Assembly: GCF_000185805.1 (NCBI RefSeq)
Contig: NC_014926.1
Coordinates: forward strand, 1,482,501 to 1,546,500
Direction of reading: 5' to 3'
DNA length: 64,000 bases
Source of the DNA: Thermovibrio ammonificans HB-1
GTDB taxonomy: Bacteria; Aquificota; Aquificia; Desulfurobacteriales; Desulfurobacteriaceae
In this document: positions 5,566-57,734 of the stretch, piece by piece
Layout of the letters: each line of letters begins with the position of its first letter
Position numbering within the stretch: position 1 is the stretch's first letter
Position numbers and translations under genes: made by a program
Notes under the pieces: generated by a model
Seen by the model: only the letters and a program-made list of their open reading frames with translations
Databases searched by the model: none
What the model was told of the DNA's origin: nothing

Positions 5566-6831
5566 CTACTCCAAAAGCGCAAACCTCTCCATCTCTTCCC
5601 GAACAAACTTCTTAACAGTCTTCTTCCTATCGGGTCTGTACCGTAAAAGGATTTCTCCCGTAGAACTCCTTTTAAGCTCAACAACATTTCTCTCGAAACC
5701 TGCGTGGGCAAAGAAGTTCCTCTTATCCGGGTGGGCTCTATCTTTCCGTTTATCGTCCGATTCTTTTTGTTCCTGCTTATCAGAATTCGCAAGGTAGTCG
5801 TTGTAAGGAACTCCCTCACCCTCCAGCAAGCGGACAACAGAGCACAAACTCTCAAGAACCGAAAAAGCGAAAACGGCCACCCTAACAGAATCTTGAAATG
5901 TCCCACTCCTCTTTACGGAGAAAGTTCCATCCTCGTAGGTACACTCTGTAAGCCTTCGATAGTCGGAAACGCACCTTTCCAAAACTTCATTCAACCCCTC
6001 GTAAAATCTCTTAATAGAAAGGGCCTCTTCTGCAAGAAGCAGGGGTAAACCAAAAGCTAAAGAGCCGTACAAAATGTACAACTCTTCAAGCTTATTCTCC
6101 CTGCAAGACCTTCTCAGTTCACTGTGATTTGTCTTTACAAAGGATCTTTTATCTTTAAGTGTTCTTTCTAATGAAATTTTCGGAATTAATAACGCCTCTT
6201 CAACAACGTTAATATTTGAATCTGCAACTCCGGTTACTACAGGGTCGGCGTTGTAGGCAACAAATTTCACCTTTCTGAAGTTAGCAAGAAGCGAAAAAAC
6301 TCCTTTAACGCTCTATAGGTAAGGACCGGAACAAAATTTAAACCATGAGCAAGGTCCAACATAACCTCAATTTCATCGTTATCAGAAAACAATCTGTTGT
6401 TCTTAAAGAACTTATAGAGTTCAAACAGGAAAGCGTAAAAGTAATCGGTTGCTTCCCCTTCAACTCGTATAGTAACTCCATTTTCAACTCCTCGAGGCGG
6501 AGGGAAAGTTCCCTTGCCCGGAAGGACAAAAATCTCAATCCTCCCTTCTTCAAGGCCCTGTGCAGATAGAAAACCTTTAACAGACTCCTTTACGTAATTA
6601 ACGTGAGTTTCATAAGTTACCGGCTCCCCTTTAAGGAGAAGTTCCTTCTCTCTGTCATCTAAAAGAGAGTCGGGTACAATGATCGGGTACAATGAGAAGA
6701 ACATAATCCGGCTCAAGGCTGTTCACTAACAATTTCAAAGAGGTTGCCGAACTTTCAGACCTACCATCAAAGTGATAGGTAACCTCGTTCCAGGCCTTAA
6801 AATTACCCCAAGGAGTAATCAACATCCTCAT
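5566..6831 (-). pseudogene. csx1: Csx1 (CARF-HEPN type III CRISPR ancillary RNase), two frameshifts
   Basis: Three consecutive frames together encode a roughly 410-residue Csx1. The first starts at ATG 6831 (MRMLITPWGNF...YVLLIVPD). The second carries the CARF-domain motif LDLAHGLNFVPVLTYRAL. The third has the linker motif YNADPV and the C-terminal HEPN RNase motif R-x4-H in KRNFFAHAGF. The first break is a perfect 13-bp tandem duplication (6670-6695); removing one copy restores IVPDSLLDD. The second lies at a T6 run on the coding strand (6294-6299); adding one T restores KEFFSLLANFRKVKFVAYNADPV. Intact Csx1 is activated by cyclic oligoadenylate from Cas10 and cuts RNA. No cas10 is present in the window. 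Sequencing error at the T6 run is possible but cannot explain the duplication easily. Confidence 0.85.
6670..6695. repeat. 13-bp perfect tandem duplication inside csx1
   Basis: TCGGGTACAATGA occurs at 6670-6682 and again at 6683-6695 with no mismatch. Thirteen is not a multiple of three, so the duplication shifts the csx1 reading frame. Its perfection suggests a recent event or a reversible slippage site. Confidence 0.95.
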
Positions 6832-9858: not shown

Positions 9859-10677
9859 ATGAAGCTATTTGTCACAGAAAGTGGGGAATTAAAAACCGGC
9901 TGGGGGAAATTAATAATAAAAACCAAAACAAAGGGAAAAGAATTTCCCTTAAGCAAATTAGAGGCTGTCATTTTACTCAATAACTTGCAAATTCCTCAAA
10001 AGGCCATTGAGGATTTCAGAAAACATAATCTGTTAACAGTCCAAGTCAATGACGACCTAATCCGGATAATTACCACCCCTAAGCTTGAAAAGTTTAAATT
10101 CCCTGAACCAAACAGCTATAAATTTTACTCAATGATTCACCTCAAAAAGGAAGAAGCCCTCAGAACACTTCTATCTTTCCGTAGCGCCTCCGGAACCAGA
10201 GAACTACGCCAACAAAACAGAGCTTTCTATCAGAACATACTCAACAAAACCCTAAATGGAAGAGCGGAGTTGGGAAATAGAACAATCGACCAACTTATAA
10301 CGTCGGAGTTTCTAAGATACGTAGACCAGTTTTCCTCAGTTAACCCCAAATCCCCCGAACTGAATAAGTTCGTTCTATTTATAACAGGCTTATCAAGGGC
10401 ACTAACAGCCTACATTATGAAAGGCGAAGGGTACACGCCTGAGGAGGAAATCGTTGAAAAATTGGAGAATCTGCTCCTCCCCCAGAGACTCTTCATATGT
10501 GCCCATATGCTCAACACCGGCCTAATAGATACTGAAGAACTTACACCCAAAGGCCTAACCGAAGCAGGAAAGAAAATAGCCACAAAAATTCTCCTGGAGT
10601 TCACCTATAACGGAGAGTATTTACTCCCTGTCATATTCACAATCAGAAAAATTGTAGGTGAGGGAAAATTTCAATGA
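9859..10677 (+). CDS. Cas1-like protein lacking the usual His/Asp metal ligands
   Basis: A 272-residue protein whose N-terminus matches the Cas1 beta domain (LFVTESGELKTGWGKLII, then EFPLSKLEAVILLNNLQIP). The helical half shows Cas1-like landmarks: NKFVLFITGLSRALTAYI where Cas1 has its N-x-LLS-x-x-Y helix, and a C-terminal LTEAGKKIATKIL like the Cas1 LTxEGR ending. Glu150 (LITSEFLRYV) may align with the catalytic Glu. The GFLH histidine and LALDLME aspartate are absent (GEGYTPEEEIVEKLEN in that place). It is therefore likely inactive or altered as an integrase and may be a structural partner. Its stop overlaps the next cas2 start (ATGA). Homology was judged by eye. Confidence 0.6.
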   Translation: MKLFVTESGELKTGWGKLIIKTKTKGKEFPLSKLEAVILLNNLQIPQKAIEDFRKHNLLTVQVNDDLIRIITTPKLEKFKFPEPNSYKFYSMIHLKKEEALRTLLSFRSASGTRELRQQNRAFYQNILNKTLNGRAELGNRTIDQLITSEFLRYVDQFSSVNPKSPELNKFVLFITGLSRALTAYIMKGEGYTPEEEIVEKLENLLLPQRLFICAHMLNTGLIDTEELTPKGLTEAGKKIATKILLEFTYNGEYLLPVIFTIRKIVGEGKFQ

Positions 10678-10940
10678 TGTATTTAATTACATACGACATA
10701 TCCAATGATAAAACAAGAACAAAAGTGGCAGACATCCTTGAAAAATTCGGCAAAAGAGTCCAATTCAGCTGTTTTGAAGTAGAATGCACTGAAAAAGAAC
10801 TCTCCGAACTTTTCAAACGAATTGACAAACTAATAAATAAACAGACAGACCACGTAATAGCCTATCCGCTAACAAAAAACAGCCTTAAAGGAGAAACAGC
10901 AATATGCGGGAAAAGGGAAGAAAAAACTCCACCTATGTAG
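10674..10940 (+). CDS. cas2: Cas2 (left module, first copy)
   Basis: An 88-residue ferredoxin-like Cas2. It has YLITYDISNDKTRTKVADIL, with the conserved first-strand Asp in YDIS, then FGKRVQFSCFEVE and a C-terminal VIAYPLTKN strand. Cas2 dimers bridge two Cas1 dimers in the spacer-acquisition complex. The start overlaps the end of the Cas1-like gene by four bases, and the 3' end overlaps the second cas2-like gene by 37 bp, so all three are probably translated from one message. Confidence 0.85.
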   Translation: MMYLITYDISNDKTRTKVADILEKFGKRVQFSCFEVECTEKELSELFKRIDKLINKQTDHVIAYPLTKNSLKGETAICGKREEKTPPM

Positions 10941-11233
10941 TTATCTACGACATTTTCAACTTTGAAGAAGAATATCAAGGTGCGTGGGTATCCTCAGACT
11001 ACAGAAGAAGATGCAGAATTGCTAAAGAACTTCTAAAATACGGAGTTAGAATCCAAAGAAGCGTTTTCGAGATAGAAATTTCAAAAACACAAATCCCCAA
11101 ACTCAAAGCAACTATCCAAAAATACTGCTCAAAAAGAGACAAAATCTTTATATACCTACTCGAAGATAAAGTCAAAAGCAGAGTAAAAGAAAAAGGAACA
11201 CCATTTACTCCCAGAGATATCCAAATACTGTGA
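10904..11233 (+). CDS. cas2: Cas2-like protein (left module, second copy)
   Basis: A 109-residue Cas2 homologue distinct from its neighbour. The first strand is YVVIYDIFN, followed by an insertion of about 12 residues (FEEEYQGAWVSS), then RRRCRIAKELLKYGVRIQRSVFEIEIS and a final strand DKIFIYLLED. The start ATG lies inside the 3' end of the upstream cas2, about ten bases after AAGGAG. Two different Cas2 chains encoded together suggest a heterodimer, paralleling the fused double Cas2 of the module on the other side of the array. Confidence 0.78.
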   Translation: MREKGRKNSTYVVIYDIFNFEEEYQGAWVSSDYRRRCRIAKELLKYGVRIQRSVFEIEISKTQIPKLKATIQKYCSKRDKIFIYLLEDKVKSRVKEKGTPFTPRDIQIL

Positions 11234-11284
11234 CGAAATAGAGTTGCTGTAGGAAATTCCTAAACCCCATACAAGGAGAAAACC

Positions 11285-11365
11285 ATGAAATTAATGGATG
11301 TTTTTGTATTCCTAATCATTATGTGGATTATCATCAAAGGTATCATAGACACCTTTAGAGAATAG
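11285..11365 (+). CDS. 26-residue membrane peptide inside the CRISPR island
   Basis: An ATG six bases after AAGGAG opens a 26-codon frame encoding MKLMDVFVFLIIMWIIIKG followed by IIDTFRE. It is almost entirely one hydrophobic helix with a charged tail. It lies 51 bp after the second cas2 and 51 bp before the array, on the same strand as the left module. The good ribosome-binding site and single-helix character make it a plausible small membrane protein, but it is short enough to be chance. Confidence 0.4.
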   Translation: MKLMDVFVFLIIMWIIIKGIIDTFRE

Positions 11366-11416
11366 GTTACAACCTTAACTCTAATTCCATAAATCCCCTG
11401 CTACCAAACCTTTCCT

Positions 11417-11757
11417 GCTGCAATCCCGTCTACTTTTTCGGGCATTTCAACATGAAGATGTGGAGGTTGAAGTATATTGGATATGATAAGTATCGGTCGC
11501 AATCCCGTCTACTTTTTCGGGCATTTCAACTATAACAACAACAATAATAATATACTGAGGGAAGATATTGTAATGTCGCAATCCCGTCTACTTTTTCGGG
11601 CATTTCAACGCAGATCGTAATTGAGATGAAACACAGTGCTGCCTCGTCGCAATCCCGTCTACTTTTTCGGGCATTTCAACATAATGCTTTCTGGGTCATT
11701 CCTACAATACGCTGTAGGAATGGTCGCAATCCCGTCTACTTTTTCGGGCATTTCAAC
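11417..11757 (-). CRISPR. CRISPR array 1: five 35-bp repeats, four spacers
   Basis: Repeats lie at 11417-11451, 11496-11530, 11575-11609, 11646-11680 and 11723-11757, with spacers of 44, 44, 36 and 42 bp. On the minus strand the repeat begins GTTGAAATGCCCG and ends GACGGGATTGCGAC. It can fold through a CCCG/CGGG stem. The leftmost copy differs from the others at two bases near its outer end, which marks the old, distal end. The leader is therefore on the right, and transcription runs on the minus strand from the promoter at 11894-11922. The small size suggests limited recent acquisition. Confidence 0.95.
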
Positions 11758-11893
11758 CCTTGATGGGGAATAGCCATTACAAGCCAAGGTATTCATTTTA
11801 CATTCGGCTTTCATACCATTGGTTCCCAAGGCTTCTCCCCAGTACAGGTTAGGATATACTAACATATTCTCTTCTTTCAAAGACCTTATTAAA

Positions 11894-11922
11894 ATGATAA
11901 CACACTCTCGGCCAATTCACAA
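11894..11922 (-). promoter_or_regulatory. Leader promoter of CRISPR array 1
   Basis: On the minus strand TTGTGA (11922-11917) and TATCAT (11899-11894) are exactly 17 bp apart, followed by an AT-rich leader of about 130 bp up to the first repeat at 11757. The -35 element overlaps the stop codon of the fused cas2 gene. Position and direction fit pre-crRNA transcription from the young end of the array. Confidence 0.55.
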
Positions 11923-12549
11923 GATATCCCTAAATGAAAGGTAGGAGCTTCCTATACGAATAATTTTCTTCTCACTACCCTTATCTATAGGATAGAGATA
12001 GACCTTCAAATTATCATCTATCTCGGCAAACTGCATAGCTAATACTGCTATTCTTGCGATAACATTAGGAGATGCCGGAACCTCAAAGGCGCTAAGCTGA
12101 ACTCTTTCGGAGAACTCCTCCAAAATATCTGAGAATTTTATCCTAATCAAGTTGTCACTAATATCGTAAACCAGAAGATACTTGGAAAATTTACCGCTTT
12201 TTATTTCCATTTCGAGAGTATCTCTTAAAAAATAAAAGAATTTTCTGCGGGTAAGCCTACCTAACTCCTCTTTCCAATCCATCAAATCTTCGTAAATCTC
12301 TCCAAACTTCCGAGGAAAGCGTAATATATAAGAGCGGCAATAATTGCTAATCGGATAAAAGAAAACTCTATCTGTATCGTAGTTAATACGAACCGACAGT
12401 ATAAGTGCAAGTTTTTTAATTATTTCCTGAGAGTAGTTCCCAATTTCAAAACAGCTGTACTGGACACGTTCTCCATACTTTTCGAGGATATTCGCCACCC
12501 GCAAACGCGTTTTGTTATCTCTTATATCATAAACCACAACATACATCAC
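11917..12549 (-). CDS. cas2: Fused Cas2-Cas2 protein
   Basis: A 210-residue protein with two Cas2 domains in one chain. The N-terminal copy covers about residues 1-75: YVVVYDIRDNKTRLRVANIL with Asp8, then ERVQYSCFEIG and the strand RVFFYPIS. A helical linker of about 45 residues follows (YEDLMDWKEELGRLTRRKFF). The second copy covers about 122-205: YLLVYDISDNLIRIKFSDIL with Asp129, then ERVQLSAFEVP and the strand KVYLYPIDKG. A normal Cas2 has about 90 residues and forms a homodimer, so this is a single-chain, asymmetric pseudo-dimer. It follows cas1 without a gap (GTG directly after TGA; an ATG lies one codon later). Confidence 0.88.
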   Translation of the reverse strand: MMYVVVYDIRDNKTRLRVANILEKYGERVQYSCFEIGNYSQEIIKKLALILSVRINYDTDRVFFYPISNYCRSYILRFPRKFGEIYEDLMDWKEELGRLTRRKFFYFLRDTLEMEIKSGKFSKYLLVYDISDNLIRIKFSDILEEFSERVQLSAFEVPASPNVIARIAVLAMQFAEIDDNLKVYLYPIDKGSEKKIIRIGSSYLSFRDIL

Positions 12550-13446
12550 TCAAACAAGCTTCTCCTTCAGCTTTTTAATAAAAGAGTTAGCAGTATTTAA
12601 AACCTTCTTCTTCCTCTGGAACTCTGTTAACAGTAACAGTAAAAACTTGAGCTTATCTTCTCTAAGAGTAATTCCTCTTATAGTTTGCTCAAAATCTTCC
12701 TTTTTAAAAATTTTTGTTTCAAAAAGCTCAAAGACGAAATTCGCTATTTTAGGCCGCACAATTTCTATCACATCCGATGCCAACGAAGCGTGAGTGCCTC
12801 TTCTCCTATGAAAGAAGCCCATATAAGGGTCGAATCCACTGCCAATAACGTTGGCAGTTATAAGGTTGTAAAAATAGGAAAAAGCCAAACTCAAAACAGC
12901 GTTTACCGGGTCGGGAGGAGGATAGTACTCTCGAGACTTAAAAGAAAACTCCCCCAAATCTTTTTGAGAGTAGTAGCCATACATCAACTTCCCTAAGGTG
13001 CCGTCTAAGCCAAGAAGCGTATTTAGCGTATCTGCAACGGGAATTTTTTCCTCAACCTCTGTAATCTTTTCTGATATATCCGGAATAACCTCTTTAAGCT
13101 GATTACATTTTTTTAAAAGAAGCTCTCTAATTAGAGCATTAGCAAAGGCCTCTTCGGGGAAAAGCCTATATTGTGCCGCCCTTAAATTAACCGTAGAGCT
13201 TCCAAAATGCTCCGGGAGACTCACAGATACAACTTTCCCAAATCCGTTAACAAAAATGACAGGCCTATTATGATGAGACAGGAACCGGATTGCAGAAGAG
13301 GTTATAGATACCCCTGGAAAAAGGATTAAAAGTTCTATAACACCTAAAGGTACCGGCTTATTCCTGCCGTTTACACTTACCAACAAACGATTTGCCCTTT
13401 TCGATACCTCTGCTCCGTAGGAAGCAACAACTATCGGTCGCTTCAA
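12550..13446 (-). CDS. cas1: Cas1 integrase
   Basis: A 298-residue Cas1. The N-terminal beta domain (RLLVSVNGRNKPVPLGVIELLI) is followed by the catalytic helical domain. The metal ligands are visible as His213 in FDPYMGFFHRRRG and Asp225 in SLASDVIEIVRP. The third position, normally Glu in the GxEG motif, is Asp148 here (LLGLDGTLGKLMYGYY). PPPDPVNAVLSLAFSYFY is the typical PxDPVNxxLS segment. Translation starts at TTG after GAGGGGG. With the fused Cas2 downstream it should form the spacer-integration complex for the adjacent array. Confidence 0.92.
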   Translation of the reverse strand: MKRPIVVASYGAEVSKRANRLLVSVNGRNKPVPLGVIELLILFPGVSITSSAIRFLSHHNRPVIFVNGFGKVVSVSLPEHFGSSTVNLRAAQYRLFPEEAFANALIRELLLKKCNQLKEVIPDISEKITEVEEKIPVADTLNTLLGLDGTLGKLMYGYYSQKDLGEFSFKSREYYPPPDPVNAVLSLAFSYFYNLITANVIGSGFDPYMGFFHRRRGTHASLASDVIEIVRPKIANFVFELFETKIFKKEDFEQTIRGITLREDKLKFLLLLLTEFQRKKKVLNTANSFIKKLKEKLV

Positions 13447-14562: not shown

Positions 14563-15024
14563 GTGCGGAAATTCCTAATGGAACTAATAGCTACGGCCCT
14601 CTACACCGGGAAGTTGCCCAAAATGCCTGGGACTTGGGGCTCTATATTTGCCACTTTGCTCGTTTACTTTTTCTGGCCCCAGAGTTTGAAACTGCAGCTC
14701 TTCATAGTTGCAATAACCTTCCTGCTGAGCGTTATCTCCTCCGACTACCTCTCCAAAGAGCTGAACTCTAAAGACCCCGACCAAGTGGTAATAGATGAAG
14801 TCCTCGGCATATTCATAACTTTCCTCGGTGTAAAGGCGCAACACAACCCAGCAGCTGCCCTGGCGGGCCTCATAATCTTCAGAGCTGTTGATATAATGAA
14901 ACCTCCCCCCATCACCTGGTTTGAAAAACTCCCAGGCGGATGGGGAATAACGGCAGACGATGCAATAGCCGGCGTTGTCTCAAACTTGCTCCTGAGAATA
15001 GTTGGAGGTTTTCTCCATGTTTAA
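14563..15024 (+). CDS. pgpA: Phosphatidylglycerophosphatase A
   Basis: A 153-residue membrane enzyme of the PgpA family, which removes phosphate from phosphatidylglycerophosphate to form phosphatidylglycerol. The characteristic motifs are present: the N-terminal TGKLPKMPGTWGS, the acidic DQVVIDEVLGIF and the C-terminal WGITADDAIAGV. Hydrophobic helices lie between them. It starts at GTG after GGGAGG, and its 3' end overlaps the carboxylase gene by eight bases, giving a pgpA-pycA-pycB unit. Confidence 0.9.
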   Translation: MRKFLMELIATALYTGKLPKMPGTWGSIFATLLVYFFWPQSLKLQLFIVAITFLLSVISSDYLSKELNSKDPDQVVIDEVLGIFITFLGVKAQHNPAAALAGLIIFRAVDIMKPPPITWFEKLPGGWGITADDAIAGVVSNLLLRIVGGFLHV

Positions 15025-16435
15025 GAAGGTTCTGATAGCAAACCGCGGAGAGGTTGCTACAAGGGTCATAAGGGCCTGCAAGGAGCTGGGAATAAAAACC
15101 GTAGCCATTTACTCCGAAGCAGATGTCAACTCACTCCACGTTAAAAAGGCAGACGAGGCCTACCTAATCCACGGAGACCCTGTTAAAGCCTACCTCAACT
15201 ACTACAAAATAGTAGATATAGCCAAAAGGGCAGGAGCAGAAGCTATACACCCGGGCTACGGCTTCTTATCCGAAAGGGCAGACTTTGCCGAGTACGCCCG
15301 CAAAAAAGGAATAGAGTTCATCGGCCCTTCGGTGGAACACCTGAGAATATTCGGCAGCAAAATTGAGTCTAAGAAGCTCATGAAAGAGCTGGGAGTTCCC
15401 GTTGCCGAAGGCAGTGAGAAACCGATAAACGACCTTCAAGAGGCCAAAGAGATAGCCAAGAAAATAGGTTACCCTGTGATGATAAAAGCGGCCCACGGCG
15501 GAGGCGGTAGGGGCCTTAGGGTGGCGAGAAACGAAAAAGAGCTTGAGACCCAGTTTCAGATAGCTGTTAAGGAGGCCGAGGCAGCTTTTGGAAAAGGCGA
15601 GGTTTTCATTGAGAAGTACATAGAGAATCCCAGACACATAGAGATTCAAATAGTGGCCGACAAGCACGGGAACGTTGTTCACCTGGGGGAGAGGGACTGC
15701 TCTCTCCAGAGAAGACACCAGAAAGTTCTCGAAATAGCTCCTTCCCCGGTTCTAACCAGAAGACAGAGGGAGAAGCTTGGAAAGATATGCGTAGAGGCGG
15801 CAAGGAAGATAGGCTACTACGGAGTAGGAACCTGGGAATTCCTCATGGATAAATACGGCAACTTTTACTTTATGGAAGTAAATCCCAGGCTTCAGGTTGA
15901 ACACACAATAACCGAAGAGGTTACAGGAATAGACATCGTTCAGGAGCAGATAAGAATAGCCGCAGGAATGGGCCTCTCATTCTCCCAGAGAAACGTTCAG
16001 CTTCGCGGGTTCGCAATGCAGTTCAGGATAAACGCCGAAGACCCTTCCAAAGATTTCGTCCCGGTTCCCGGAACGATAACCGCCTACTACTCCCCGGGAG
16101 GAATAGGAGTAAGGATAGACGGCGTGGTTTACAAGGGCTACACAATTCCTCCCTACTACGATTCAATGGTGGCCAAGCTGATAGTTTGGGGAAGGAACTG
16201 GGACGAAGTAATCAGACGCTCAAGGAGGGCACTCGGAGAGTTCGTAATAAGAGGTGTGCCCACAACCATTCCCTTCTTTAAGAAGATACTGAACGACCCG
16301 GAGTTTGTTAAAGGGCAGTTCGATACCTCCTTTATCGATAAGAAAATCAAGGAGTTCACCTTTATTCAAGAAACCGACCCAGAGGTGCTGGCCCTTGCTA
16401 TATCTGCAGCAATAGCAGCACACCACGGACTTTAA
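15017..16435 (+). CDS. pycA: Biotin carboxylase subunit (pyruvate carboxylase A type)
   Basis: A 472-residue ATP-grasp biotin carboxylase. It has FKKVLIANRGEVATRVIRA at the N-terminus, the Gly-rich ATP lid AAHGGGGRGLRVA near residue 160, and the catalytic segments ERDCSLQRRHQKVLE and MEVNPRLQVEHTITE. The start is the ATG at 15017, eight bases after GGAGG. It carboxylates the biotin carried by the partner subunit encoded 11 bp downstream. In Aquificota such pairs act as pyruvate carboxylase or 2-oxoglutarate carboxylase, and the sequence alone does not decide which. Confidence 0.88.
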   Translation: MFKKVLIANRGEVATRVIRACKELGIKTVAIYSEADVNSLHVKKADEAYLIHGDPVKAYLNYYKIVDIAKRAGAEAIHPGYGFLSERADFAEYARKKGIEFIGPSVEHLRIFGSKIESKKLMKELGVPVAEGSEKPINDLQEAKEIAKKIGYPVMIKAAHGGGGRGLRVARNEKELETQFQIAVKEAEAAFGKGEVFIEKYIENPRHIEIQIVADKHGNVVHLGERDCSLQRRHQKVLEIAPSPVLTRRQREKLGKICVEAARKIGYYGVGTWEFLMDKYGNFYFMEVNPRLQVEHTITEEVTGIDIVQEQIRIAAGMGLSFSQRNVQLRGFAMQFRINAEDPSKDFVPVPGTITAYYSPGGIGVRIDGVVYKGYTIPPYYDSMVAKLIVWGRNWDEVIRRSRRALGEFVIRGVPTTIPFFKKILNDPEFVKGQFDTSFIDKKIKEFTFIQETDPEVLALAISAAIAAHHGL

Positions 16436-16446
16436 CGGAGGCAGCA

Positions 16447-18303
16447 ATGGGAAGGAAGATAGAGTTCACAGATGTAAGCCTAAGGGATGCCCACCAGTCA
16501 CTCTTTGCCACAAGGATGAAAACAAAAGACATGGTGGAAATCGCCCCCGTAATCGACAAAGCCGGCTTTTGGTCGGTTGAGATGTGGGGCGGAGCAACCT
16601 TCGACGTGTGTCTGAGGTTCCTCAGAGAGGACCCGTGGGAGAGGCTCAAAGTTCTAAGGAAGCTTATGCCCAACTCAAGATTACAGATGCTCCTCAGGGG
16701 CCAGAACCTTGTAGGCTACCGCCACTATCCAGACGACGTTGTCAGGGCCTTTGTGAGAAAGGCTGCCGAAAACGGCATAGACGTCTTTAGGATATTTGAC
16801 GCTCTAAACGACCTGAGGAACGTAGAGGTGGCCGTTGAAACCGCCAAAGAGATGGGGAAAATCGTAGAAGGCGCCCTCTCCTACACCATCAGCCCCGTCC
16901 ATACAGAAGACCTCTACATAGAGCTGGCCCTTGAATTTAAGGAGATGGGAGCCGACATAATCACCATAAAAGACATGGCGGGCTTGCTCTCTCCCGAAAG
17001 GGCCTACTCCTTGGTTAAAGCGCTCAAGGAAGAGGTGGGCCTACCGGTTCACGTTCATACCCACTGCACAAGCGGCATGGCCGAAATGGCACAGTTAAAA
17101 GCAATAGAGGCCGGAGCCGACATAATAGACGTTGCAAGCTCTCCACTTGCCTCCGACACTTCCCACCCGGCAGTGGAGACAATGGCCTATACCTTAGGTG
17201 AGTTCGGATATGAAATCGGGTTCGACAAAGAAGCCCTTAAAAAGATGGCCCAGCACTTTAAAGAGGTAAGAAAGAAATACAAGAAGTACGACATAGACTT
17301 CAAAGGCATAGATGCTGCCGTTTTAGAGCACCAGATTCCGGGCGGCATGATTTCCAACCTCATTAACCAGCTAAAAGAACAGGGAGCACTCGATAAGTTG
17401 GAAGAGGTTCTGAAAGAGGTTCCGAGGGTTAGAGAGGACTTCGGATACCCGCCCCTTGTTACGCCGACAAGTCAGATAGTAGGTACACAGGCCGTCTTGA
17501 ACGTTCTTGCAGGCGAGCGCTACAAGATGATTACCCAGGAGACTAAAAACTACGTAAAAGGACTCTACGGAAGACCTCCGGCTCCGATTAAAGAGGAGAT
17601 TATTAAGAAGGTTCTCGGAGATGAAGAGCCGATAACCTGCAGACCCGCAGACCTTCTTCAGCCGGAGCTGGGAAAGTGTAGGGAAGAGATTAAGGACCTT
17701 GCCAGAAGCGAAGAGGACGTTCTCTCCTACTGCCTCTTCCCGAAAGTGGCAAGGGAGTTCTTTGAGTGGCGCGAAAAGGTTGAGAAGGGAGAGATACCGG
17801 CCATCTCGGAAGAGGACCTACAGGACATGGAGGAGGAGGAGAGGAAGTGCCCACAACCTCTTGCTCCCACCGAGTTTATCGTTAACGTTCACGGCGAGAG
17901 CTACCACGTGAAAATCGCCGGCGTAGGGCATAAGAAGGAGGGTAAAAAGCCTTACTTCATCAAGATAGACGGCAGACTCGAAGAGGTTGTTGTTGAGCCC
18001 CTTGTTGAGGTAGTACCAACCGGAGAAGAGGTTGAAATTGCAGGAGAGTTAACATCCGCCTCCAAGAGGCCGAGGGCCACTAAGGAGGGCGACGTCACCT
18101 CTCCTATGCCCGCAAAGGTGGTTGAGATTAAGGTTAAAGAGGGCGATAGAGTCCAGGAAGGTGACGTTGTTGCCATAGTAGAAGCCATGAAGATGCAGAA
18201 CGAGGTTCACGCCCCCATAAGCGGCGTTGTTAAGGCCATTTACGTTAAACCGGGGGATAACGTGAACCCGGATGAAGCTTTAATGACAATAGAACCCGAA
18301 TAG
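16447..18303 (+). CDS. pycB: Carboxyltransferase-biotin carrier subunit (pyruvate carboxylase B / CfiA type)
   Basis: A 618-residue protein with an N-terminal TIM-barrel carboxyltransferase domain (FTDVSLRDAHQSLFATRM; metal ligands in IKDMAGLL and VHVHTHCTSGMA), a conserved PYC_OADA domain (residues about 290-480) and a C-terminal biotinyl domain. The modified Lys lies in VEAMKMQNEVHAP near residue 583. It transfers the carboxyl group from biotin to the keto acid. With pycA it forms a two-subunit enzyme feeding oxaloacetate or oxalosuccinate into the central carbon pathway, probably the reductive TCA cycle of this autotroph. The exact keto acid substrate is not certain. Confidence 0.87.
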   Translation: MGRKIEFTDVSLRDAHQSLFATRMKTKDMVEIAPVIDKAGFWSVEMWGGATFDVCLRFLREDPWERLKVLRKLMPNSRLQMLLRGQNLVGYRHYPDDVVRAFVRKAAENGIDVFRIFDALNDLRNVEVAVETAKEMGKIVEGALSYTISPVHTEDLYIELALEFKEMGADIITIKDMAGLLSPERAYSLVKALKEEVGLPVHVHTHCTSGMAEMAQLKAIEAGADIIDVASSPLASDTSHPAVETMAYTLGEFGYEIGFDKEALKKMAQHFKEVRKKYKKYDIDFKGIDAAVLEHQIPGGMISNLINQLKEQGALDKLEEVLKEVPRVREDFGYPPLVTPTSQIVGTQAVLNVLAGERYKMITQETKNYVKGLYGRPPAPIKEEIIKKVLGDEEPITCRPADLLQPELGKCREEIKDLARSEEDVLSYCLFPKVAREFFEWREKVEKGEIPAISEEDLQDMEEEERKCPQPLAPTEFIVNVHGESYHVKIAGVGHKKEGKKPYFIKIDGRLEEVVVEPLVEVVPTGEEVEIAGELTSASKRPRATKEGDVTSPMPAKVVEIKVKEGDRVQEGDVVAIVEAMKMQNEVHAPISGVVKAIYVKPGDNVNPDEALMTIEPE

Positions 18304-56863: not shown

Positions 56864-57479
56864 GTTTAAATCCCACTTGTTCAGATAAAACTAGATATTG
56901 GGGGTAAGCAAATTCAAATAAATCAATGGTTTAAATCCCACTTGTTCAGATAAAACCACGAAGAGGAGATGAGATATTTCCACATCTACTACAGTTTAAA
57001 TCCCACTTGTTCAGATAAAACTTCTTGTCCTGAAAGAGGCCATTGAGAACGCCCTCAAAGGTTTAAATCCCACTTGTTCAGATAAAACTTGGCGTAGCTA
57101 TTCACAAAAGCCAGCTCTATCGTGGGTTTAAATCCCACTTGTTCAGATAAAACTTAGGAGCTTCTGCCTGAGTTTCTCTATTTTGTTGGTTTAAATCCCA
57201 CTTGTTCAGATAAAACCGGGGGAGGAGATGAACTTGCGTTCCCTATATGACGACGTTTAAATCCCACTTGTTCAGATAAAACGGCGACCTTGAGACCGTA
57301 AGGGAGTTCTTAAAGAAGAGGTTTAAATCCCACTTGTTCAGATAAAACGATTACGAATACGAGGTTACCACCGCCACCTTTGAGGGTTTAAATCCCACTT
57401 GTTCAGATAAAACGAGCAGGAATAGAACTCAAGAGAGAAAGGCCGTTTTAGGTTTAAATCCCACTTGTTCAGATAAAAC
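56864..57479 (-). CRISPR. CRISPR array 2: ten 28-bp repeats, nine spacers
   Basis: Repeats start at 56864, 56929, 56994, 57061, 57126, 57189, 57255, 57321, 57386 and 57452, each 28 bp. On the plus strand they begin GTTTAAATCCCAC and end GATAAAAC. All ten read as identical. Spacers are 35-39 bp. The reverse complement (GTTTTATCTGAAC start) resembles type I-B repeats, which together with the promoter at 57527-57556 suggests minus-strand transcription with the leader on the right. No cas genes are adjacent. The repeat differs from that of array 1. Confidence 0.97.
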
Positions 57480-57734
57480 CAACCTTTGGCCATATTCTCA
57501 AGTTAAAGAACTGCAATGCTTTTCTCATTATAGCAAATTGGTGAAGAGAGGGTTAAGTGCAGCGGACCTCCATTAAGTTTATGATAATAATCTAATATAA
57601 ATCCTGAAGGGCTTGCAGCCCAAGCTACAAGCCCAACTTTGAATATTTTATGATGGAATGCAGTAAGTTTTCTAAAACTATATTTTAGATACAGGAACTC
57701 CGAAATACAGGATAGAGCGGAACCGAAGTTAAAT
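57480..57734. other. AT-rich leader and noncoding gap right of array 2
   Basis: No gene is supported in this stretch. The first 80 bp next to the array hold the probable leader and its promoter. Further on, GGGCTTG...CAAGCCC (57609-57634) and TCTAAAA...TTTTAGA near 57675 form inverted repeats of unknown role. Confidence 0.5.
57527..57556 (-). promoter_or_regulatory. Leader promoter of CRISPR array 2
   Basis: On the minus strand TTAACC (57556-57551) and a perfect TATAAT (57532-57527) are 18 bp apart. Transcription would start about 40 bp before the first repeat at 57479. Confidence 0.55.

What the first reader, a model, noticed from the sequence alone, without database searches (positions are those of the whole stretch)
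9859..13446. Two opposed Cas1/Cas2 modules around one five-repeat array
Seen directly: a left module (Cas1-like, Cas2, Cas2-like) reads right towards the array, and a right module (Cas1, fused Cas2-Cas2) reads left towards it. Each module pairs one Cas1-family protein with two different Cas2 domains. No Cas4, reverse transcriptase or effector gene lies nearby. Inference: the left module may be a divergent paralogue of the right one that works as an accessory or regulator of spacer integration, or it may give a mixed, asymmetric complex. I know of no described system with this arrangement.
Basis: partly seen in the sequence, partly recalled or inferred. Interest (0 to 1): 0.88.

Follow-up and report, generated by a model that had tools for sequence, protein, structure and literature searches.

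The report
Dead Cas1 module beside CRISPR array
Beside an ordinary spacer-inserting gene set of a heat-loving bacterium's CRISPR immune system lies a second, strongly altered copy whose main enzyme has lost its active site; because the copy is kept intact in a related species, and similar dead copies sit in one operon with live ones in another family, some of these bacteria may build their memory-writing machine partly from inactive parts.

Summary
The right module (Cas1 + fused Cas2-Cas2, minus strand) and the five-repeat array form one ordinary adaptation unit: the 35-nt repeats read on the minus strand, and the sequence right of the array is the leader of two other arrays in this genome. 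The left module is a separate unit at the leader-distal end. Its 272-aa protein is a real, full-length Cas1 homologue (profile-profile E 5e-8; shuffled controls fail) that lacks the catalytic His/Asp block and probably the catalytic acid: a dead Cas1. A congeneric genome keeps the same three-gene module, with saturated silent sites, in the same slot before pgpA but without array or right module; the right-type module lies elsewhere there. So the opposed layout is incidental, while the left module is conserved. 'One Cas1 with two Cas2' is not special: Cas2 A/B pairs, tandem or fused, are common in this family and occur elsewhere. What appears undescribed (limited literature search) is a dead Cas1 kept with a Cas2 A/B pair and, in a second family, a dead Cas1 in one operon with an active Cas1 and two Cas2. 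Best reading: a non-catalytic subunit or regulator of an asymmetric integrase. Function is inferred, not shown.

The parts
9859..10677 (+). Cas1L, 272 aa: full-length Cas1 homologue without the catalytic His/Asp block and probably without the catalytic acid (dead Cas1)
   Evidence: profile-profile prob 94.9, E 4.7e-8; alignments; shuffled/reversed controls; AF2 + Foldseek with canonical Cas1 in the MSA
10674..10940 (+). Cas2 of A type, 88 aa; ATGA overlap with Cas1L
   Evidence: Pfam Cas2 6e-23; tree; overlap
10904..11233 (+). Cas2 of B type, 109 aa, with an insertion (GAW...DYxRR) after the first strand
   Evidence: Pfam Cas2 1.6e-16; B-type group in the tree; alignment
11417..11757 (-). CRISPR array, five 35-nt repeats GTTGAAATGCCCGAAAAAGTAGACGGGATTGCGAC read on the minus strand; altered (leader-distal) repeat at the left end
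   Evidence: same repeat family in 15 of 22 genomes of the family
11758..11890 (-). leader of the array, between array and Cas2-Cas2
   Evidence: alignment with the upstream flanks of two other arrays of this genome: scores 66 and 37, shuffled maximum 19; the left flank of the array gives no match. The 11890 end is approximate
11917..12549 (-). fused Cas2-Cas2, 210 aa: N half A type, C half B type
   Evidence: two Cas2 stretches; domain tree
12550..13446 (-). Cas1R, 298 aa, canonical, with D/H/D at the catalytic positions (Glu replaced by Asp)
   Evidence: Pfam 1.3e-51; catalytic columns
14563..18303 (+). pgpA and two biotin-carboxylase-type genes: flank that marks the conserved slot of the left module (not part of the system)
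   Evidence: same order after the left module in G135 (L033); folC and pgpA directly adjacent in L221-L223

Best explanation
Two adaptation modules of different status lie side by side. Shown by sequence: the right module (Cas1R plus a covalently joined Cas2A-Cas2B) with its leader and array is a complete spacer-integration unit. Shown by sequence: the left module encodes a Cas1 homologue without an active site (Cas1L), with its own Cas2A and Cas2B. Inferred: Cas1L-Cas2A-Cas2B still forms a Cas1-Cas2-like complex that can bind prespacer ends, and works with the active Cas1 in trans. Dead subunits would take the non-catalytic Cas1 positions, or one half, of the integrase, giving an asymmetric complex in which only one end or one protomer cuts and joins. 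This would set the order or orientation of integration, or hold back integration. Most likely role: non-catalytic subunit or regulator of spacer acquisition for the type III systems of this genome.
For: Full-length Cas1 homology with loss of the His/Asp block in both known Cas1L. In G135 the motif LDGxLxKxxYGY of Cas1R reads LNGYLDKALYGY. Intact three-gene module with coupled start/stop (ATGA) in two genomes of the genus at 30/51/48% protein identity although four-fold sites are saturated (about 40% identical in flanking genes); an open frame of 272 codons would survive by chance with p about 2e-6. Same slot before pgpA in both. Both genomes with Cas1L also carry the active Cas1 + fused Cas2 module; the two congeners without Cas1L have no cas2 at all. 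Parallel case: in family f4 a dead Cas1 (p290: catalytic His replaced by Asn in every copy that reaches that site) lies in the operon p290-cas2-cas1-cas2 with an active-looking GIEG Cas1; cas2 and cas1 adjoin p290 in all 9 loci whose flanks are held, the second cas2 too in the 7 whose flank reaches it; 9 genomes carry p290. Another dead Cas1 (302 aa) stands next to cas1 and two cas2 in L080. The fused Cas2A-Cas2B suggests that the A/B pair works as a heterodimer unit.
Against: No experiment and no complex model. In G135 the two modules are unlinked, so interaction is inferred only from co-occurrence in two genomes. The left module has its own Cas2 pair and could act alone. The acid-site loss depends on alignment register (one search puts N140 there, one search puts A136; E137 is close). 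p290 and Cas1L do not match each other, so the parallel may be convergent rather than homologous.
Confidence: 0.42

Rival explanations
1. The left module is a free-standing pseudo-integrase: a Cas1L-Cas2A-Cas2B complex that binds DNA ends or leader/repeat DNA without chemistry and limits spacer acquisition as a decoy or competitor, without entering the active complex.
For: It has a complete set of its own Cas1-like and Cas2A/B chains, and in G135 it stands alone without array. Loss of catalysis with a well-modelled N-terminal domain.
Against: The f4 operons put the dead Cas1 directly with the active one. No leader-like sequence on its side of the array.
Confidence: 0.22
2. The left module is a decaying remnant: an old adaptation module that lost catalysis after the right module took over, now drifting.
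For: Cas1L is the fastest-evolving gene of the set (30% identity against 41% for Cas1R, 62% for PgpA, 93-95% for the next genes); absent in two congeners; restricted to two genomes of 136 in the phylum.
Against: Intact frames and coupled starts in two genomes at saturated silent divergence; Cas2A and Cas2B still about 50% identical; slot retained.
Confidence: 0.2
3. The left module is repurposed for something outside CRISPR adaptation, for example DNA-end binding in repair or a Cas2-based nuclease/toxin unit.
For: In G135 no array lies within the 20 kb examined around it.
Against: Cas2A/B pairing is the same as in adaptation modules; present only where an active-looking adaptation module with fused Cas2 is present.
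Confidence: 0.1
4. Cas1L is still an active integrase with a rearranged active site.
For: Conserved acids between the two copies (D144, E190, E195, E197, E200).
Against: No conserved histidine; the His loop is deleted in both copies.
Confidence: 0.06

Closest known systems
Canonical Cas1-Cas2 adaptation module (Cas1 dimer - Cas2 dimer - Cas1 dimer)
   Same: Right module: Cas1, Cas2 fold, leader and array in the usual order. In known complexes one Cas1 of each dimer is non-catalytic by position (PMC8102632 names Cas1a catalytic, Cas1b non-catalytic).
   Different: Two different Cas2 (A and B, here fused) instead of a homodimer; Asp instead of Glu at the catalytic acid; the left copy encodes a Cas1 that is dead by sequence.
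Tandem-cas2 adaptation modules (cas1-cas2-cas2') of Desulfurobacteriaceae, Desulfurellales, Spirochaetes and RT-Cas1 loci
   Same: Same gene order cas1-cas2A-cas2B, same A/B split for Desulfurobacteriaceae and Desulfurellales, same repeat family within Desulfurobacteriaceae.
   Different: Their Cas1 keeps the catalytic residues and, in the family, their array follows on the same strand; the left module has neither.
   Same: A catalytically dead Cas1 homologue kept with an active-looking Cas1 and two Cas2.
   Different: One operon rather than two modules; p290 keeps the Asp and has a His-to-Asn change rather than a deletion; p290 and Cas1L profiles do not match each other.
Accessory partners of other adaptation complexes (Csn2 in type II-A, Cas4 in type I)
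   Same: Idea of a non-integrating partner that shapes spacer capture or orientation (own knowledge).
   Different: No Csn2 or Cas4 in these two modules; the partner would be a Cas1 paralogue.

Membership tests
Cas1 family (protein 9859-10677) | sequence homology over both domains | tested here: met
   hhalign prob 94.9, E 4.7e-8 over 257 columns; shuffled max 0.9%, reversed 0.2%. Single-profile searches reach only aa 3-61 and stay under the Pfam and NCBIfam cut-offs
Cas1 family (protein 9859-10677) | catalytic Glu/Asp, His, Asp | tested here: not met
   His loop and Asp replaced or deleted in both copies; acid replaced, register uncertain
Cas1 family (protein 9859-10677) | Cas1 fold | tested here: inconclusive
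   AF2 without canonical Cas1: pLDDT 40.9, many of the top Foldseek hits Cas1 but E at best 0.03. With canonical Cas1 in the MSA: pLDDT 66.9, all 50 best PDB hits Cas1 or casposase, prob 1.00, but TM at most about 0.5 and the MSA favours this
Functional CRISPR adaptation module (right module) | Cas1 with acid/His/Asp, Cas2, adjacent leader and array | tested here: met
   D/H/D motif, two Cas2 domains, leader shared with two other arrays
Functional CRISPR adaptation module (left module) | catalytic Cas1 and leader-adjacent array | tested here: not met
   dead Cas1; no leader match on its side; array polarity belongs to the right module
Cas2 family (three proteins) | Cas2 profile above curated cut-off | tested here: met
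   Pfam 81, 61 and 90 bits, cut-off 23.8
Adaptation for type III systems | crRNAs used by a type III effector | not testable with these tools
   type III-A- and III-B-like operons are in the genome without cas1 or cas2 beside them; use of this array's crRNA cannot be tested here
Active-plus-dead heteromeric integrase | physical complex of both Cas1 types | not testable with these tools
   only co-occurrence and operon linkage shown

The most novel reading that the evidence does not exclude
Part of the Aquificota phylum builds obligately asymmetric CRISPR integrases: a Cas2A/Cas2B heterodimer core carrying a catalytic Cas1 and a catalytically dead Cas1 paralogue, so that polarity of spacer integration is built into the enzyme. 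The left module of Thermovibrio is the split-off, trans-acting version of the dead half.
Probability: 0.25. Interest if true: 0.85.

Novelty: new variant of a known kind. Interest (0 to 1): 0.62.

Why it matters
The Cas1-Cas2 integrases known to me use one Cas1 gene product in two roles, and how spacers are oriented without Cas4 or a PAM (as in type III) is open. A natural dead Cas1 retained with adaptation genes, in two families of one phylum and in different gene arrangements, makes the non-catalytic role of Cas1 separable by genes and testable. The Cas2 A/B pair, fused in the right module, gives a natural covalent Cas2 heterodimer for structural work. It also warns annotators: profile libraries miss the dead Cas1 of the window or see only its N-terminal 60 residues.

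Tried and rejected
(1) 'Array shared by both modules': rejected by leader and repeat polarity. (2) 'One Cas1 with two Cas2 is unique': rejected, widespread. (3) 'Spurious Cas1 resemblance in 9859-10677': rejected by hhalign with shuffled, reversed and neighbour controls. (4) Phylogenetic place of Cas1L: unresolved; long branches, four AU tests with p 0.15-0.38 reject nothing. (5) Cas1L against the Cas1 of other phyla gives only prob 12, against 94.9 for the Aquificota set, which hints at a local origin but proves nothing. (6) AF2 with the two Cas1L alone: low confidence. (7) Cas1L in viral contigs, plasmids or GTDB genome contigs: none found by those scans; G135's contig came back through Cas2B. 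p290 in viral contigs: none. (8) Weak phylum hits of Cas1L at E 0.005-0.01: the G072 hit lies in a cas2/cas1 cluster whose Cas1-like gene appears broken (L036); the hits in G124, G126, G032, G059 and G062 were not followed. (9) Ten literature searches, most of them aimed at this question, found no report of tandem cas2 pairs or dead Cas1 paralogues; the library lacks most subscription papers, so this does not prove novelty.
Full report
Source. The window lies in a 1,682,965-base contig of a 1.76-Mb genome; this is exactly the chromosome length published for Thermovibrio ammonificans HB-1 (PMC5441870).

Observation. The three Cas2 proteins and the right Cas1 are plain members of their families. 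The left protein, Cas1L, hits Cas1 models only at residues 3-61 and below the Pfam and NCBIfam cut-offs. Comparing a profile of Cas1L plus its congener homologue with a profile of canonical Cas1 proteins from this phylum gives prob 94.9, E 4.7e-8 over 257 columns. Controls: column-shuffled profiles reach at most 0.9%, the reversed one 0.2%; of 212 CRISPR-neighbour proteins only one exceeds 1.7%, and that one is itself a divergent Cas1 (L080, 302 aa). An AF2 model with canonical Cas1 in the alignment matches only Cas1 and casposase among its 50 best PDB hits; a model without them is too poor to count.

The right module and the array are one unit. Repeats are 35 nt, GTTGAAATGCCC...GGGATTGCGAC. 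In the sister loci of the family with an array just after the module, the repeat reads in this direction on the strand of cas1-cas2-cas2 and follows those genes. In the window this orientation fits the right module only. The roughly 130 bases between the array and the fused Cas2 align with the upstream flanks of the two other arrays of this genome (scores 66 and 37; shuffled maximum 19), while the left flank matches nothing; the altered repeat is at the left end. So the leader is on the right, and the left module abuts the trailer.

The left module is conserved, the layout is not. In congener G135 (found again as L110, MAG Desulfurobacteriaceae 4571-419) the same three genes lie before pgpA and the two carboxylase genes, as in the window, but with no array or right module beside them. 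A right-type module (cas1 + fused cas2-cas2) is on another contig (L042). In other genera folC and pgpA are direct neighbours (L221-L223), so the cas genes are an insertion there. The two other congeners have neither Cas1L nor any cas2. Between the two species flanking silent sites are saturated (about 40% identical at four-fold sites) and yet all three left frames are intact; Cas1L, Cas2A and Cas2B are 30, 51 and 48% identical, Cas1R 41%. This argues against simple decay, though Cas1L changes fastest.

Cas1L is dead by sequence. The full-length canonical Cas1 of the set have acid/His/Asp, with two cyanobacterial exceptions. In both Cas1L the stretch with the catalytic His and Asp (GFFHRRRGTHASLASD in Cas1R) is deleted or replaced. 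At the acid, G135 reads LNGYLDKALYGY where Cas1R reads LDGTLGKLMYGY; in the window N140 aligns there, but A136, so the acid site is less certain than the His/Asp block. Side finding: the Cas1 of Desulfurobacteriaceae and Desulfurellales with Cas2 pairs carry Asp instead of Glu at this site.

Two Cas2 with one Cas1 is a common trait. The modules found in this family by the Cas2 search are cas1-cas2-cas2' or cas1 plus fused cas2-cas2, and tandem cas2 also occurs in Desulfurellales, Spirochaetes, Desulfovibrio, Nitrospirae and RT-Cas1-sized fusions. In a tree of Cas2 domains the left Cas2-like protein, the C half of the fusion and the third genes of the triads group together (93/84), apart from the A-type Cas2 (few columns, moderate support). 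The fusion is thus a covalent A-B pair, and A-B heterodimers are the simplest reading for all of them.

Dead Cas1 elsewhere. In family f4 of the same phylum (probably Hydrogenothermaceae, my inference) a gene of 283-299 aa, p290, precedes cas2 and cas1 with overlapping frames in all 9 loci whose flanks are held, and a second cas2 follows in the 7 whose flank reaches that far; 9 genomes carry p290. p290 is a full-length Cas1 homologue by profile comparison (prob 93.8, E 1.8e-7). Its catalytic His is Asn in every copy that reaches the site, while the Cas1 beside it keeps GIEG and the SDxME Asp motif. A third form, 302 aa, stands beside cas1 and two cas2 in L080, and a seemingly broken one in L036. 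p290 and Cas1L do not match each other, and trees cannot tell one origin from several.

Mechanism. Shown: a complete, probably active right module; a left module with dead Cas1 and A/B Cas2; dead Cas1 linked to active-looking Cas1 in f4. Inferred: the dead protein fills non-catalytic Cas1 positions or one half of the integrase, giving polarity or restraint. In the Cas6-RT-Cas1-Cas2 structure the Cas1 dimers hold one catalytic and one non-catalytic protomer (PMC8102632), so a dedicated non-catalytic chain is reasonable. Interference would come from the type III-A- and III-B-like operons elsewhere in the genome, which have no cas1 or cas2 beside them; that they use this array is not shown.

Verdict. 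A new variant of the known Cas1-Cas2 adaptation module.

Noticed in passing
window 5566-6716 (-): csx1 split into a CARF ORF (6267-6716) and a HEPN ORF (5566-6270) with a 4-base overlap: a frameshift-split or two-subunit Csx1.
   Followed up: partly
L005 9721-10533 (G000:C2:1579748-1580560): The Cas1 gene next to cas4-like and cas2 genes in what looks like a type I-B locus has an in-frame TGA that cuts the protein short; in G135 (L043) it is full length (321 aa).
   Followed up: partly
window 56864-57487: A further CRISPR array of 10 repeats of another kind (28 nt, GTTTAAATCCCACTTGTTCAGATAAAAC).
   Followed up: no
L111, L115, L118, L123, L130 and the family loci: Catalytic Glu of Cas1 replaced by Asp (GxDG) in Desulfurobacteriaceae and Desulfurellales, all with Cas2 A/B pairs.
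   Followed up: partly
L176, L183, L184, L188: RT-Cas1-sized fusions (675-737 aa) followed by two tandem cas2 genes.
   Followed up: partly
L141 4821-5879; L159 4867-5928: Cyanobacterial (Laspinema) Cas1-like proteins lacking the GxEG acid, next to cas2; in L141 a 666-aa Cas1 fusion lies upstream.
   Followed up: no
L128 3597-5967: Two different Cas1 genes followed by one cas2 in Microcystis.
   Followed up: no
L036 9166-10081: A Cas1-like gene that appears broken into two ORFs, between cas1 and two cas2 (G072).
   Followed up: partly
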